Of a DNA stretch of 64,000 nt, positions 65 through 7,429 are shown one piece after another. Numbering within the stretch: the first letter of the stretch is position 1; every line of letters begins with the position of its first letter. The stretch is from Nitrospina sp. LS_NOB (GTDB lineage Bacteria > Nitrospinota > Nitrospinia > Nitrospinales > VA-1): the NCBI GenBank assembly GCA_001542995.1, contig LFLA01000026.1:1-64000 (forward strand), given 5' to 3'. The position numbers and the translations under genes were made by a program. The notes under the pieces were generated by a model, which saw nothing but the letters and a program-made list of their open reading frames with translations, was not told where the DNA came from and searched no databases.

Positions 65-1192
65 CTACGACAGCCCCTTCTTTTTTTCTTCAGTTCCTAC
101 GATTCTTTCAATGGAGGCAATGTATTTCAACAACTTTGTTGAGGGTGATAGTTCTGAAACGGCTTCTCCGTACCATTTCAAAGAATCAAAAATTCGTTGA
201 CTCAAAAAATTTGACTTATCTGGTTCAGTAATGGTTTGTAACCCCATATTTAAGCTATTTAGCTCATGTTTATAGTTCTCTGTTATTTTTTCAAACCAGT
301 CGTCACAAACAAAATTGCTGTCAGAATCCTGACGAAGGGAAAAATTAAAATGACCCTTAGAATTTTTAATCACGGATGCGGTTTTAATTGGTGGAGTCGC
401 AGAATTCCCTAACCGCATTTTGTCTGAATGGAATTCACCTATAATTAATTTTAAAATATTTAGTGCTCCCTCGACGGCCATTTTTGCCCGCATTTTAGAC
501 ACTTCATGATGGCAATTGTTAACAGTGACTTCTGCAACCCAATCATAATTTTTTAAATAGCTTAATGAATTATCAACCAAATAATTCGCATATTCATCCG
601 ATTGTCTTGGGGTTGCAACTTTAGATGCAGGATATCCTTCCTTAATGGCCAATTTACATCTTTCTTTATGGGATTGAGAAATTCGTTCACGTTCGAGGGA
701 AAAATTACTATTATTATTTTCAATATACTTTTCAGTCCTGAAGAATTGCACTGGGCCCATAGTAAAAGAGGATGGATTTTCATGCCGCACCACTGAACAT
801 GGAATTACGTGTGTAATTGAATCAAAACTGCGCTCGATAGTTTTATATGCTTTCGCTAGCATAAGGCTGACGTTTTTTTCGTTTACAATATTTTGCTTTT
901 CAAGAAATCGAGTAGAAAATTCTGAAAACAATTCCTTGGTAAAATCGGAGCCCTTCACTTTGTCATTTTTGTCTTTTTGGGTTGACAAGTATCTTTCGGC
1001 CATGCGGTGGAAGCGATTATGAGCTTCCTTGCCATAGATGGAGATCCCACGTCTAGAAGGGAGATTCAGGAAAAATGAAGCATCAGAGTCATGCTTTTTT
1101 AATTCCCCCGGTGTTTTAGTAAGAGATTGGAAAAAGTTTATTTTCTCAATGATAAAATTGACATCAGCTAAATTCTGCTCTGTTTTGTTCAT
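65..1192 (-). CDS. Hypothetical protein with possible C-terminal HEPN (ApeA-like) segment
   Basis: A 375-residue soluble protein with no signal peptide or membrane segment. I do not recognise the full-length family. The C-terminal part (about residues 325-365, containing RIFDSLKWYGEAVSEL followed by a short helix with LLKYIASIERIVG) resembles the helical signature of Apea-like HEPN domains, which occur in defence and stress RNases. I do not see the complete RxxxxH catalytic motif, so nuclease activity is not claimed. The DNA is AT-rich compared with the housekeeping genes further on, which suits acquired DNA. The ATG at 1192 is the only good start; there is no partner gene close by. The assignment rests on recollection of HEPN profiles rather than a search. 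Confidence 0.55.
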   Translation of the reverse strand: MNKTEQNLADVNFIIEKINFFQSLTKTPGELKKHDSDASFFLNLPSRRGISIYGKEAHNRFHRMAERYLSTQKDKNDKVKGSDFTKELFSEFSTRFLEKQNIVNEKNVSLMLAKAYKTIERSFDSITHVIPCSVVRHENPSSFTMGPVQFFRTEKYIENNNSNFSLERERISQSHKERCKLAIKEGYPASKVATPRQSDEYANYLVDNSLSYLKNYDWVAEVTVNNCHHEVSKMRAKMAVEGALNILKLIIGEFHSDKMRLGNSATPPIKTASVIKNSKGHFNFSLRQDSDSNFVCDDWFEKITENYKHELNSLNMGLQTITEPDKSNFLSQRIFDSLKWYGEAVSELSPSTKLLKYIASIERIVGTEEKKKGLS

Positions 1193-1802: not shown

Positions 1803-3383
1803 ATGGGTTTATTGACTGCCAGACCTTCTTCCGCCAAATTCGTTATGGAAGATCCCTGCTTTCTCGATGTCGGTGAACACCCGGACTGGCAAGGTCAATT
1901 CGGCAACAGCCAGCCTGTAAAGCTGGAAATCGGCTTTGGAATGGGGGATTTCCTGATTGAAATGGCGACCCGGGAACCTCATAGCAATTTTGTCGGGATA
2001 GATTTTTCCCAAGATGGTATCCGCAAATTATTGATCCGGATTAAAGAACTTCACTTGAATAATATTCGTGTTGTTTATGGTGATGTCCGGGAAAAAATCC
2101 CCTTTCTTTTCCAAGATGGTGAGTTGGATACGGTCTATATCAATTTTCCCGACCCCTGGCCGAAAAAAAGGCATTTTAAACGACGGCTGATCAAACCAGC
2201 ACTGGTCACGCTGATTGCCAGAAAGCTGACTCTGGAAGGTCACGTTTATCTGGCCACCGACAGCGAACCCTATGCCCATGAAATTCTTGAATATTTCAAT
2301 GCTGAACCCTTGTTGCAAAACAAAAGTCAGGAGCCTGGTTTTCTTTTTCGCCGTGACCAACTGCCCAAAACGAAATACGAAAAAAGTTTTATTTACGCTG
2401 GGGATAAAATCCATTACCTGGAATATTCCCGACGAGCGGCAAAGGGACAACCCGGGGAAATTGTTTCTTCTGCACAAGAAGAAACCAATGGACTTGCAGA
2501 GGAAAAAACCTTGAGCAATGACGAAATGCTGATTAAAAAATTTAAACGTACTGAAGCGAAAGCTAAAGATGCCTGTGATCTTCAACAGCTTGGCGGTCAT
2601 TTAGCCTATGCAGGCGACAGGCAGTGGGCCGAAAAAGTTTATCAAAAAGCCGAAGCCATGGCCGAAGACAGTCTGGATTTGAATTGGCTGGCCTACAATG
2701 TTTCTGAAACACTGGGCGATAAAGACTGGGCGAAAAAATTATACGATAAAGCCGAAGCCAGGGCCGAAAGCAGTCTGGACTTGAACTGGCTGGCCTACAG
2801 TGTTTCTGAAACACTGGGCGATAAAAGCCGGGCGAGAAAACTCTATGAGAAAGCTGAGAACAACCCCCAAAACATTCGTGAACTCTGTGATCTCGCTGAC
2901 AGCATTTCCGAAACATTGGGCGATCAGGAATGGCAAATAAAAGTTTATAAGAAAGCCGAAGCTATGGCGAAAGAGCATTCCGACTTCTACGAACTTGCCG
3001 ACAGCGTCTGTGCAAAGCTTGGCGACAAAAAATGGGCCAGAGAGCTCTATGAGAAAGCCGAGGACACGGCCCAAGACAGCAGCGACCTCCATAGTCTGGT
3101 CGAGAGCCTTGCAGAAAATCTGGGCGATCAGGAATGGGCTAAAAAAGTTTATTTAAAGGCCGAAAGCATGGCCCAGGACAGCACTGATTTCTGCTGTCTG
3201 GCCGAGAGCCTGTTGCAAAATTTGAGTGATGAGGAATGGGCCAGGAAGTTATATAAAAAAGCCGAAGACCAAGCTGAAGAAAGTTTTGAATACCGCTGGC
3301 TGGCCGACAGCCTGAGTGAATTACTGGGTGATAAAGAATGGGCTGAACAGGTATGTCAGAAAGCGAAAAACCTTTTTAGCTGA
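1803..3383 (+). CDS. trmB: tRNA (guanine46-N7)-methyltransferase TrmB fused to eight TPR-like repeats
   Basis: Residues 1-215 are a TrmB methyltransferase, which places m7G at position 46 of tRNA using S-adenosylmethionine. The SAM loop LEIGFGMGDFLIEMA (about 41-55) and the family signature FPDPWPKKRHFKRRLI (115-130) are both present. After a polar linker the C-terminal half (about 249-520) is eight consecutive 34-residue repeats of the form AEx(M/R)AxxSxDLxxLAxSxSExLGDKEWAxKxYxK, the length of tetratricopeptide repeats. Bacterial TrmB proteins are usually 200-240 residues, so this one is more than twice the normal length. The repeats are strongly acidic and similar to one another, pointing to recent expansion. 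The methyltransferase call is firm; what the repeat array binds is unknown. Confidence 0.9.
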   Translation: MGLLTARPSSAKFVMEDPCFLDVGEHPDWQGQFGNSQPVKLEIGFGMGDFLIEMATREPHSNFVGIDFSQDGIRKLLIRIKELHLNNIRVVYGDVREKIPFLFQDGELDTVYINFPDPWPKKRHFKRRLIKPALVTLIARKLTLEGHVYLATDSEPYAHEILEYFNAEPLLQNKSQEPGFLFRRDQLPKTKYEKSFIYAGDKIHYLEYSRRAAKGQPGEIVSSAQEETNGLAEEKTLSNDEMLIKKFKRTEAKAKDACDLQQLGGHLAYAGDRQWAEKVYQKAEAMAEDSLDLNWLAYNVSETLGDKDWAKKLYDKAEARAESSLDLNWLAYSVSETLGDKSRARKLYEKAENNPQNIRELCDLADSISETLGDQEWQIKVYKKAEAMAKEHSDFYELADSVCAKLGDKKWARELYEKAEDTAQDSSDLHSLVESLAENLGDQEWAKKVYLKAESMAQDSTDFCCLAESLLQNLSDEEWARKLYKKAEDQAEESFEYRWLADSLSELLGDKEWAEQVCQKAKNLFS

Positions 3384-3415: not shown

Positions 3416-3939
3416 TCACTCGTGACATTCTTCAATGCAGGCCTCTAAACCTTTGCTAATGACTTCTATGATTTCATTTTTCAGGGTTTCGCCTAACTCA
3501 TTAATTCCGCCTTCATCGCAATTTTCTATTTTCCACTCATAACCTTCAGATAGATCTTTTTCGGCGCATATTTTTTTAACTTCGGCAATAGCCTCTTCCT
3601 TTGTGTCAGATTTCAAGGGAGCTTCCAGATTGGTGTTGACCGAGATTTGGGCGACGTTTAAATCATAGTGAGCGGTGAACCCATCCCAGAATATATTTTC
3701 ATCGGTTTCATCCTGTTCGAGCTGTTCAATGATGTTGTCTGATAATTTATCGTCAAAGGTGTTGATTCCCCCGTGCTCACATCCTTCAATTTTCCACTTA
3801 TAACCTTCGAATATTTTTTTTTGTCTATCATCCTTTCAACTTCTTTGTTGGCTTCTTCTTTAGTGGTTCTGGATTTCAACCGTACTTCCAGATTTGTATG
3901 CACATAGATATTACGAACTTTTAATTTCAAACTACTCAT
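3416..3939 (-). pseudogene. Frameshifted gene for a protein with two copies of a ~75-residue domain
   Basis: The ORF track shows two pieces (3658-3969 and 3416-3616). They join into one reading frame if a -1 shift occurs at a run of nine A (minus strand, 3822-3814). The joined protein would be about 175 residues starting at the ATG at 3939, which has AGAGGA just upstream. The two halves are repeats of each other: both have xVxTNLExxLKSxTKEEAxxEV followed by EGYxWKIExCxxGGIN. I do not recognise the domain; it is small, acidic and has no signal peptide or membrane segment. Three explanations remain: an inactivated gene, a sequencing slip in the homopolymer, or real -1 frameshifting on A9. Confidence 0.7.
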
Positions 3940-4173: not shown

Positions 4174-5535
4174 CTAATAGAACACTTTAGCGATGAAGAC
4201 GATGCCCACCGCAACCGGGGTGATATAGCGGATGAGGAACTCCCAACTTTGCGCCCAGGGGAAGCCGAACTTGTTTTTGTGTTTTTCGATTTCAATATGT
4301 GCGTTTTTGGTTCCCCAGACCCAGCCTACGAAAATGGCGGTCAACATGCCGCCTAACGGTAAAAGGTAATTGGAAGCAATGTTGTCAATATGATCGAAGA
4401 AGGTCATGCCGAGAAACTTAACGTCTGCCATGACCCCGAACGAAAGCCCTGATGGAATGCCAAACGCGAAAATGGCGGACCCGACAATCAGCACGGCTCT
4501 TTTTCGTTGCCATCCACGCTGGTCGATGAAATAGGCCACGACCACCTCCAGCAGGGAAATCCCCGATGTGATGGCGGCAATGGCCAGCAGGATGAAGAAG
4601 ATAGCTGCTACGCCATGACCCAATGGCATCCCGGCAAATACGGTGGGCAGAACGCTGAAAACCAGCCCCGGTCCTTCGGTAGGTTCGAGTCCCATCGCAA
4701 ACACCGCCGGGAAAATGACCATGCCGACCAGAAGGGCGATGAGGGTGTCGAACATCACAACATAAACGGTGGAAGAGGTCAGGTTTTCTTTTTCCGGCAG
4801 GTAACTGCCGTAAGTGATCATAGCCCCCATCCCCAGGCTGAGTGAAAAGAAGGCGTGCCCCAAAGCAATGAGGACTACGTTGCCGCTGATCTTGCTGAAG
4901 TCGGGAGTTAGATAAAAGGCCACGCCTTCCATCGCTCCATCGAGAGTGAGGGAGCGAATCATCAGTAGAATCAGGATGATGACCAGAGTCGGCATGAGGA
5001 TGTTGCAGGCTTTTTCAATGCCTCCATGCACGCCTCTTAAGACGATGGCGATGCAGGTCCCCATGAATAGCGCGTGGTAGAAAAGCACTTCCCCGGAATT
5101 TCTTATAAAGCTTGCAAAAAACTCGCCCGATTCCTTAGGGGAGGAAAATGCCAGCACCGAACCGGTGATGGATTTCGCGACATAAGCGAAAGTCCAACCG
5201 CCCACCACCCCGTAAAAGGAAAGAATAAGGAATCCGCCGAGCACGCCCATATAACCGATACCGATCCACGGCGATTTGGGTTGCAGTTGTTCAAAAGCGC
5301 CGACCGGGTTGCGATTGGTTTTTCGGCCCAGAGTGAATTCGGCCAGCATGACGGGCGTACCGATCACGAAAATACAGACCAGATAAATGAGCACAAACGC
5401 CCCGCCGCCATTTTCGCCCACTATATAAGGAAACTTCCAGATATTACCGAGTCCGACCGCGGACCCGGAAGCGGCCAGGATGAAACCCATGCGACTTCCC
5501 CAGAACCCGCGCTGATTATTGCTTTCGGTCTTCAT
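4174..5535 (-). CDS. Sodium-dependent amino acid symporter, NSS/SNF family
   Basis: A 453-residue inner-membrane transporter of the neurotransmitter:sodium symporter family, which couples amino-acid uptake to Na+ entry. The TM1 hallmark AASGSAVGLGNIWKFPY, with its unwound Na+/substrate site, is at residues 21-37, followed by ENGGGAFVLIY in TM2. Around eleven hydrophobic segments can be counted, the length and topology of short bacterial members such as MhsT rather than the 12-TM LeuT form. Substrate cannot be told from sequence. The gene faces away from uvrC with only about 30 bp between the two starts, so their promoters must overlap or lie inside the coding regions. Confidence 0.92.
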   Translation of the reverse strand: MKTESNNQRGFWGSRMGFILAASGSAVGLGNIWKFPYIVGENGGGAFVLIYLVCIFVIGTPVMLAEFTLGRKTNRNPVGAFEQLQPKSPWIGIGYMGVLGGFLILSFYGVVGGWTFAYVAKSITGSVLAFSSPKESGEFFASFIRNSGEVLFYHALFMGTCIAIVLRGVHGGIEKACNILMPTLVIILILLMIRSLTLDGAMEGVAFYLTPDFSKISGNVVLIALGHAFFSLSLGMGAMITYGSYLPEKENLTSSTVYVVMFDTLIALLVGMVIFPAVFAMGLEPTEGPGLVFSVLPTVFAGMPLGHGVAAIFFILLAIAAITSGISLLEVVVAYFIDQRGWQRKRAVLIVGSAIFAFGIPSGLSFGVMADVKFLGMTFFDHIDNIASNYLLPLGGMLTAIFVGWVWGTKNAHIEIEKHKNKFGFPWAQSWEFLIRYITPVAVGIVFIAKVFY

Positions 5536-5566
5536 CTAAATGGGAGTATATTTCTAATATGACTCG

Positions 5567-7429
5567 TTGTTGGCAACCGGGAGGTTTCCCCTGGAAAAAA
5601 TAATCAAAGATATTATAGAGAATATTCCCAAGCTACCCGGCATTTATATCATGAAGGATTCCCGATTGGAAATTCTTTATATCGGCAAGGCCAAAGTTCT
5701 GAGAAACCGGGTGCGTTCTTATTTCCAAAATTCCCGCACCCTTCACCCCAGGACGAGGATGTTTTTGGACAAAGTCCGCGACATCAAGTTTTTGACCACC
5801 AAGACCGAAGCCGAAGCGCTGATCCTGGAAAGTAATTTCGTCAAGAAGCATCAACCCCGCTATAACGTCCTGCTCAAAGACGACAAGCATTACCCTTATT
5901 TACGTTTGACCACGCAGGAGAAATTTCCAAGGCTGGAGGTGGTGCGCCAGGTGCGAAAAGACAAGGCGACCTATTTCGGTCCTTATACCATGGTCAAGGA
6001 AGTCCGTGAAACGATCCGGCTGATTTATAAAATCTTTCCGCTTCGCCAGAGCAAAGACAAGCTGAACGGACAACCCATGCGTCGCCCCTGCCTCAACCAC
6101 CAGATGGGCCGGTGCCTGGCCCCGTGTGCCGGCAAGGTTTCTCCCGACGAATATAAGAAAGTGGTTGAGGATGTGGAGCTGTTTCTCAAAGGCAAAAACA
6201 CGTCGCTCCTGAAAAACCTGAAGGCGGGTATGGAAGCGGCGTCTGCAGAGACACGCTACGAAGAAGCCGCGATTTTCCGGGATAAAATCCAAGCTGTGCA
6301 AACGGTGCTCGACAAACAGAAAATCATCTCCACTTCTCTGCAGGATCAGGATGTCATTGCCTATTGTTCCGAAAAAGATCAGGCCATGGCGCAGGTGCTG
6401 ATCATCCGTGATGGAAAAATGCTGAGCGAAAAAATATTCAAGATGAAATCGCTCAACGAAATGGAAGAAGATGAAACCCTGTCCTCTTTTCTCAAACAGT
6501 ACTACGCCGAAGAGGTGGTTCTGCCCGCTGAAATTTTATTGCCCCATCCTGTTGAAGATTCCGATTTGATCGCCGACTGGCTGTCAGAAAAAAAAGGAAC
6601 CCGGGTGAGGCTTGAAACTCCTGTAATCGGTAAAAAACGCGATCTCGTGAGAATGGCGGAAGAAAACGCCCGCTTTGCCATGAGAGTGGAGCGCGACAAG
6701 GGCAATGTTGGCACCCGCTCGCTGGAAGAACTGCAAACGGCTCTCGGCCTGAACCATTTCCCGGAAGTGATTGAAGGGTTTGATTTGTCCAATATATCGG
6801 GAAGACACGCGGTGGGTTCGATGGTGGTGTTTGAAAACGCCCTGGCAGAAAAATCTAAATATCGCCGCTACAAAATTGCCACAGTAAAAGGAATTGACGA
6901 TTACGCCATGCTGAGAGAGGTGATGACCCGCCGTTATCGCCGCCTCCTCAACGAGGGCAGTCCGTTGCCCAATCTGGTGCTCATCGACGGGGGTAAAGGC
7001 CATTTGAACTCCGGCCGGGAAGTTTTTGAGGCCTTGGGACTTCTTGACCGGGTCGATCTGGCCTGCATCGCCAAGGGGAAATATCGCAACAATCTTGATA
7101 CGGATGAGGTTTATTTATTGCACAAAAAAGAACCGGTGCTTTTTAAAGAGAACTCCCCTTCCCGATTTCTCATGCAACGGATTCGCGATGAGGCGCACCG
7201 GTTTGCCATTTCCCATCACCGTCGATTACGCGACAAGGAGGCTTTGAGTTCGCCGTTGGAAAACATTCCGGGTATCGGCAAAAAACGCCGATTGCTGCTT
7301 TTAAAGCAATTTGGCAGTCTGGAAAATATCCGCAATGCTTCGGTGGAGGAACTGACCACCCTGCCGGGCATCACCCCGTCTCTGGCAGAAAAACTGCGCC
7401 AGCGTGACGCTGGACCCAATGAGCAATAG
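5567..7429 (+). CDS. uvrC: Excinuclease ABC subunit C
   Basis: UvrC makes both incisions in nucleotide excision repair after UvrAB has located a lesion. The order of parts is standard: GIY-YIG nuclease (LPGIYIMKDSRLEILYIGKA, near residues 22-41), the CLNHQMGRCLAPC cysteine cluster, a UVR motif (YEEAAIFRDKIQAV), the RNase H-like 3' incision domain (EGFDLSNISG, VLIDGGKGHLN) and a C-terminal helix-hairpin-helix pair (IPGIGKKRRLLLL, LPGITPSLAEKL). The start is uncertain: the frame opens with TTG codons at 5567 and 5570, and GGGAGG precedes a CTG closer to the family's usual N-terminus. The final residues QRDAGPNEQ are encoded by a dispersed palindromic repeat and look like a non-native tail. Confidence 0.95.
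   Translation: MLATGRFPLEKIIKDIIENIPKLPGIYIMKDSRLEILYIGKAKVLRNRVRSYFQNSRTLHPRTRMFLDKVRDIKFLTTKTEAEALILESNFVKKHQPRYNVLLKDDKHYPYLRLTTQEKFPRLEVVRQVRKDKATYFGPYTMVKEVRETIRLIYKIFPLRQSKDKLNGQPMRRPCLNHQMGRCLAPCAGKVSPDEYKKVVEDVELFLKGKNTSLLKNLKAGMEAASAETRYEEAAIFRDKIQAVQTVLDKQKIISTSLQDQDVIAYCSEKDQAMAQVLIIRDGKMLSEKIFKMKSLNEMEEDETLSSFLKQYYAEEVVLPAEILLPHPVEDSDLIADWLSEKKGTRVRLETPVIGKKRDLVRMAEENARFAMRVERDKGNVGTRSLEELQTALGLNHFPEVIEGFDLSNISGRHAVGSMVVFENALAEKSKYRRYKIATVKGIDDYAMLREVMTRRYRRLLNEGSPLPNLVLIDGGKGHLNSGREVFEALGLLDRVDLACIAKGKYRNNLDTDEVYLLHKKEPVLFKENSPSRFLMQRIRDEAHRFAISHHRRLRDKEALSSPLENIPGIGKKRRLLLLKQFGSLENIRNASVEELTTLPGITPSLAEKLRQRDAGPNEQ

What the first reader, a model, noticed from the sequence alone, without database searches (positions are those of the whole stretch)
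1803..3383. TrmB methyltransferase fused to an eight-unit TPR-like array
TrmB is normally 200-240 residues. Here it is extended by eight uniform 34-residue acidic repeats, each with an L-GD-EWA core. A protein-binding scaffold on a tRNA m7G46 methyltransferase suggests partner control or localisation of tRNA modification.
Basis: partly seen in the sequence, partly recalled or inferred. Interest (0 to 1): 0.55.

Follow-up and report, generated by a model that had tools for sequence, protein, structure and literature searches.

The report
Extra TrmB fused to TPR-like solenoid
Some marine nitrite-oxidising-type bacteria (Nitrospinaceae) carry, besides the normal tRNA-methylating enzyme TrmB, a second copy joined to a rod of about 7-10 helical repeats; the joined gene is real, shared by many related species and kept by selection, but what the rod binds is unknown.

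Summary
ORF 1803-3383 encodes a 526-aa protein: a TrmB-type methyltransferase (aa 1-212), a disordered linker (214-234) and a 34-residue helical-repeat array (eight units from aa 237, plus a partial ninth). It is not an artefact. Twenty-nine full-length in-frame orthologues occur in Nitrospinaceae and one related family, and one was found in a record not labelled as a MAG. Both parts are under purifying selection.

The same genome has an ordinary 223-aa-frame TrmB (69% identical), and all nine fusion genomes at least 90% complete have both. The fusion arose once, next to the standalone TrmB of genera g1/g6. It also sits at other loci in genera with a different standalone TrmB, so transfer or hidden paralogy is likely.

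All catalytic and tRNA-binding residues that can be mapped from E. coli TrmB are kept. A cofactor-side loop and the strip beside the tRNA-binding Thr/Glu have changed. The array is an acidic TPR/PPR/HAT-class solenoid with unit-specific conserved surfaces. I found no separate homologue of it.

Most likely it is a neofunctionalised, active RNA m7G methyltransferase directed by an unknown partner bound to the solenoid. Function is inferred. This is a new variant of a known kind.

The parts
1803..3383 (+). trmB-like methyltransferase / repeat-array fusion gene, 526 aa
   Evidence: full-length orthologues; conserved N-terminus M[GS]L[LM]TARPSS supports the ATG start
1803..2438 (+). TrmB-type SAM methyltransferase domain (aa 1-212); FPDPWPKKRHFKRR, ATDSEPYA and PKTKYEK motifs present
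   Evidence: Foldseek to EcTrmB 3dxz, TM 0.87 by target length; residue mapping
2442..2504 (+). variable acidic linker, predicted disordered (aa 214-234)
   Evidence: pLDDT < 50; length 14-33 aa in orthologues
2511..2612 (+). repeat unit 1 (degenerate), aa 237-270; carries the conserved DACDLK motif of the family (DACDLQ here)
2610..2711 (+). repeat unit 2, aa 270-303 (SLDLNWLAY)
2712..2813 (+). repeat unit 3, aa 304-337 (SLDLNWLAYS); 79% DNA identity to unit 2
2814..2915 (+). repeat unit 4, aa 338-371 (NIRELCDLADS)
2916..3017 (+). repeat unit 5, aa 372-405
3018..3119 (+). repeat unit 6, aa 406-439
3120..3221 (+). repeat unit 7, aa 440-473
3222..3323 (+). repeat unit 8, aa 474-507
3324..3380 (+). 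partial ninth unit (capping helix), aa 508-526
   Evidence: last helix 511-525

Best explanation
The gene is a second, neofunctionalised copy of the tRNA m7G46 methyltransferase TrmB that acquired a C-terminal TPR-class solenoid through a flexible linker. The standalone TrmB of the same cell does bulk tRNA m7G46. The fusion is an active SAM-dependent guanosine-N7 RNA methyltransferase with altered RNA recognition. Its acidic solenoid, mainly the conserved concave faces of units 1-4, docks one specific protein partner, which brings the methyltransferase to a subset of tRNAs, another RNA, or a condition or location. Shown here by sequence: the fusion, its single origin, coexistence with a standalone copy, constraint on both parts, retention of catalytic residues, and divergence beside the RNA-binding strip. 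Inferred: catalytic activity, changed substrate choice, and binding of a partner protein.
For: There are 29 full-length orthologues, 53-80% identical to the window's. The fusions form one group (99/92), inside a 100/99 clade with the g1/g6 standalone TrmBs. All nine fusion-bearing genomes that are at least 90% complete also have a standalone TrmB of ~210-225 aa. Median dN/dS is 0.12 (methyltransferase part), 0.14 (array) and 0.07 (standalone). Seven E. coli residues needed for activity or tRNA binding (D144, H151, R154, R155, D180, T217, E220; PMC10130221) correspond to D117, H124, R127, R128, D153, T190 and E193, all present here. The motif invariant in Nitrospinota standalone TrmB (Y69, H70, R74) is changed in most fusions. 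S195 and Y198, 5-8 residues from T190, and the N-terminal TARPSS are fusion-specific. Array fold: pLDDT 95.7, helix pairs, TPR-class neighbours. Array units are more alike between genomes (53-71%) than within one protein (37%), with strongly conserved SLDxNWLAYS and RELCDLA surfaces: this is unit-by-unit constraint, as expected for a specific binding face. Net charge of -21 argues against nucleic-acid binding by the array.
Against: No activity, substrate or partner data exist. No neighbouring gene is conserved across all fusion loci: genera g1/g6 share the NSS transporter-uvrC side, g7 has another locus. So there is no genomic hint of the partner. Some near relatives lack the fusion at an otherwise intact locus (G007, 94% complete; G006), so it is dispensable there. 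Faster evolution of the methyltransferase part could also mean relaxed constraint rather than new function. That the conserved faces are concave is inferred from the repeat register, not measured on the model.
Confidence: 0.5

Rival explanations
1. The fusion is a redundant tRNA m7G46 methyltransferase with unchanged specificity; the solenoid only stabilises, oligomerises or localises it.
For: All mapped catalytic and tRNA-binding residues are kept. It passes the TrmB equivalog cut-off. It is dispensable in some relatives.
Against: Long co-existence with a standalone copy under purifying selection, fusion-specific changes beside the tRNA-binding strip, and loss of the invariant YHKG-R loop suggest divergence.
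Confidence: 0.22
2. The array binds RNA directly, PPR/HAT-like, and itself gives the substrate specificity.
For: Best Foldseek E-values are designer PPR-RNA complexes (6een 6e-7), and the best whole-array TM-score I saw is the SART3 HAT-C domain (5ctr_B, TM 0.59), a repeat class of RNA-processing factors.
Against: The array is strongly acidic in most members (down to -28, pI 4.4-5.9). No Pfam PPR or HAT match, only weak TPR matches. The SART3 complex hit is itself a protein-protein interface. PPR local similarity is expected for any TPR-clan solenoid.
Confidence: 0.1
3. The acidic array folds back on the RNA-binding face of its own methyltransferase domain and autoinhibits it until a partner or signal releases it.
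For: Acidic array on a flexible linker; the whole model has pTM 0.82.
Against: Array charge varies from -4 to -28 between orthologues. The linker is variable and disordered. No interdomain error map was available.
Confidence: 0.1
4. The substrate is no longer RNA: the TPR part presents a bound protein to the methyltransferase.
For: TPR-methyltransferase combinations that act on proteins exist (e.g. PRMT9, SMYD proteins; from general knowledge, not tested).
Against: Nearly the complete set of tRNA-acting residues is retained across orthologues. TrmB-class N7-guanine chemistry is not known to act on proteins.
Confidence: 0.04
5. Artefact: chimeric contig, misjoined frames or recent stop loss.
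For: Genomes are mostly MAGs.
Against: 29 independent in-frame orthologues including a record not labelled MAG (AH-679-O07), with dN/dS 0.12-0.14 over both parts. No separately encoded array was found.
Confidence: 0.01

Closest known systems
TrmB (TIGR00091 / PF02390), tRNA (guanine46-N7)-methyltransferase; E. coli TrmB 3dxy/3dxz, B. subtilis 7nyb
   Same: Methyltransferase fold (TM 0.87 by target), motifs, seven functionally tested residues, family score above cut-off
   Different: C-terminal ~290-aa solenoid; second copy beside a normal TrmB; changed loop 69-74 and residues 195/198; no E. coli-like N-terminal extension (absent in Nitrospinota TrmB generally)
METTL1-WDR4 / Trm8-Trm82 (eukaryotic m7G46 enzyme with a WD40 partner)
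   Same: A TrmB-type methyltransferase working with a protein-interaction scaffold (functional analogy)
   Different: There the scaffold is a separate beta-propeller essential for the main m7G46 activity; here it is a fused alpha-solenoid on an extra copy. No homology of scaffolds
PrmC-TrmB fusion (PRK01544 / NF002421) and the ~400-aa TrmB of NF010719
   Same: Other long or fused TrmB proteins catalogued by NCBIfam
   Different: The extra parts differ; scores (64 and 75 bits) are far below those models' cut-offs (567 and 402), so this is not a member
TPR repeats (TPR_2 PF07719; designed CTPR proteins 7obi, 8chy)
   Same: 34-residue helix pairs, weak but real sequence matches (7e-5 TPR_2, 1.9e-4 CTPR-rv4)
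   Different: Below the TPR_2 gathering score; unit pattern L-GD-EWA..Y.KAE..A....D..WLA.S; superhelix closest in TM to SART3 HAT-C

Membership tests
TrmB (TIGR00091 equivalog) | Score above the curated cut-off | tested here: met
   152.8 bits against 112.65
TrmB (TIGR00091 equivalog) | Catalytic/tRNA-binding residues D144, H151, R154, R155, D180, T217, E220 of E. coli TrmB | tested here: met
   D117, H124, R127, R128, D153, T190, E193. Across 29 orthologues D117, H124, R128, D153 and E193 are invariant; R127 is Leu in two, T190 is Ser in a few
TrmB (TIGR00091 equivalog) | m7G46 formation in tRNA | not testable with these tools
   needs biochemistry
TrmB (TIGR00091 equivalog) | Orthology to the housekeeping copy | tested here: not met
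   Fusion is a paralogue; the standalone copy coexists in the genome and falls in a different group
TPR repeat array | 34-residue tandem antiparallel helix pairs | tested here: met
TPR repeat array | Pfam TPR model above gathering score | tested here: not met
   TPR_2 23.0 bits against 27; 8 of 29 orthologues match TPR_2 at E<0.01
PPR / HAT repeat array | PPR or HAT family sequence match | tested here: not met
   No PPR or HAT family among Pfam hits; only structural similarity

The most novel reading that the evidence does not exclude
A bacterial 'METTL1-WDR4-like' arrangement evolved in one polypeptide: a duplicated m7G methyltransferase steered by a covalently attached acidic TPR/HAT-like solenoid to a substrate other than bulk tRNA G46 (for example a specific tRNA set, rRNA, tmRNA or mRNA), and spread between genera of marine Nitrospinota by gene transfer.
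Probability: 0.25. Interest if true: 0.7.

Novelty: new variant of a known kind. Interest (0 to 1): 0.45.

Why it matters
As generally described, bacterial TrmB is a small enzyme that works alone, while the eukaryotic enzyme needs a scaffold protein. A bacterial clade that keeps a normal TrmB and adds a conserved scaffold-bearing copy offers a compact natural test of whether m7G placement can be directed by protein partners, and of whether bacteria have m7G targets beyond tRNA G46. The literature searches I ran found no description of a TrmB-TPR fusion, but only open-licence papers were covered.

Tried and rejected
Assembly artefact or stop loss: rejected (29 orthologues; low dN/dS). Separately encoded array in relatives: none found. 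Besides the fusions, only weak generic helical-repeat matches (E of 4e-5 or worse) turned up in 41 genomes. The genome contigs pattern scan returned only this fusion, 8 loci, all titled Nitrospinaceae, Nitrospina or Nitrospinota. No match in phages; three weak generic matches (30-31% identity) in actinobacterial plasmids, one annotated as a TPR protein. Conserved operon or partner gene: looked for in about 20 loci, none common to all. Simple vertical descent of both copies in g1, g6, g7 and g9: rejected by AU test (p 0.0002). An alignment of mixed repeat units was unusable as a scan query, so the single array of L013 was used.

Full report
Observation. The ORF at 1803-3383 (526 aa) holds a TrmB domain (TIGR00091 152.8 bits, aa 26-207; PF02390) followed by a 34-residue repeat array. 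Lag-34 self-identity is 43%, against 8% (maximum 15%) in 5000 shuffles. Units start at aa 237, 270, 304, 338, 372, 406, 440 and 474, with a partial ninth. Unit 1 is degenerate. Only units 2 and 3 are near-copies at DNA level, so the array is mostly old. AlphaFold2 on 29 orthologues gives mean pLDDT 87, a disordered linker at 214-234 and 17 helices. The array alone gives pLDDT 95.7.

Organism. The window lies on contig C18 of a 2.65-Mb genome, 98.8% complete. Relatives that carry the fusion are titled Nitrospinaceae, Nitrospina or Nitrospinota, mostly MAGs, plus AH-679-O07, whose record is not labelled MAG (that it is a single-cell genome is my inference from the name). The phylum search covered 77 genomes.

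It is real and conserved. Full-length fusions were found in genera g1, g6, g7 and g9 of the same family and g16 of a second family, 29 in all, at 53-80% identity to the window. They are in frame, with a conserved start M[GS]L[LM]TARPSS. Unit number follows the clade: 7 in g6, 7-9 in g1, 10 in g7, g9 and g16. Differences are mostly at the C-terminal end. Median dN/dS over 17 pairs with dS < 1.8 is 0.12 for the methyltransferase part, 0.14 for the array and 0.07 for the standalone TrmB. The fusion is thus constrained but evolves faster than the standalone. These are simple pairwise Nei-Gojobori estimates.

It is an extra copy. The window genome has a standalone TrmB on contig C5 (223-aa open frame, 69% identical to the fusion's methyltransferase part). 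All nine fusion genomes of at least 90% completeness have both copies (G000, G002, G003, G008, G010, G015, G020, G021, G023). Genomes in which only the fusion was found are all under 90% complete. Two g1 genomes of at least 94% completeness (G005, G007) have only the standalone.

History. In a tree of 82 methyltransferase domains the fusions are one group (99/92), inside a 100/99 clade with the g1/g6 standalone TrmBs. The standalone TrmBs of g7, g9 and g16 lie elsewhere. Forcing the standalone copies of g1, g6, g7 and g9 into one clade is rejected (AU p 0.0002). Two histories fit. Either duplication and fusion occurred in the g1/g6 line with later transfer to g7, g9 and g16, or an older duplication was followed by differential loss. 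The different chromosomal context in g7 fits transfer. In g1/g6 the gene sits beside an NSS-type transporter (named by me from sequence, not family-tested) and uvrC. The same pair lacks the fusion in G007 and G006 and in the other genera sampled, G017 and G022.

Enzyme part. Schultz et al. (PMC10130221) list E. coli residues whose substitution cuts activity to under 10%: R26, D144, H151, R154, R155, D180, T217 and E220. All but R26, which is in an N-terminal extension that Nitrospinota TrmBs lack, map to identical residues D117, H124, R127, R128, D153, T190 and E193. Activity is therefore likely. Fusion-specific changes fall in the loop after the second strand (YHKGIR, invariant in standalone copies, becomes mostly SQDGIx), at S195 and Y198 next to T190/E193, and at the N-terminus. 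These suggest altered recognition; that is inference.

Array part. Sequence: weak TPR_2 (23.0 bits, below the 27-bit cut-off) and designed TPR (1.9e-4). Structure: best E-values to designer PPR proteins (6e-7) and consensus TPR (1.5e-5); the highest TM-score I saw is to the SART3 HAT-C domain (0.59). I call it a TPR/PPR/HAT-class solenoid. It is acidic (-21, pI 4.7; -4 to -28 across orthologues), which favours protein over nucleic-acid binding. Orthologous units are 53-71% identical between genomes, against 37% between units of one protein. The strongest conservation is in units 1-4 (DACDLK, SLDxNWLAYS twice, RELCDLA), the pattern expected of a specific binding surface. I found no separate homologue of this array, so its source is unknown.

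Mechanism. Most likely (0.5) the standalone TrmB does bulk m7G46, and the fusion is an active m7G RNA methyltransferase with changed recognition, steered by a protein bound to the solenoid. Catalysis, substrate and partner are all inferred. Rivals are a redundant enzyme, RNA binding by the array, autoinhibition, and a protein substrate.

Novelty. No paper held mentions a TrmB-TPR fusion in the searches run. The parts are known and the combination is a new variant. Limits: open-licence literature only; no survey of TrmB fusions in other phyla; no experiments.

Noticed in passing
3419-3939 (- strand): The convergent neighbour gene (about 173 aa, intact in 7 or so other g1 loci, with an internal duplication TNLEV.LKS.TKEEA) appears frameshifted in the window: residues 1-42 and 40-172 lie in different frames, changing near 3810-3825.
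   Followed up: partly
65-1192 (- strand): A 375-aa ORF with no match among the neighbour genes of related fusion loci, in a stretch of low G+C (36% against 47% for the window); possibly an acquired gene.
   Followed up: no
4174-7429: The NSS-type transporter/uvrC divergent pair is conserved through the family and marks the site where the fusion is present in g1/g6 genomes and absent in G006, G007, G017 and G022.
   Followed up: partly
L011, L031, L037-L043 (genus g7): In genus g7 the fusion lies between a radical-SAM-like gene and a leucine-rich-repeat-like gene (named by eye from sequence), a different locus from g1/g6.
   Followed up: partly
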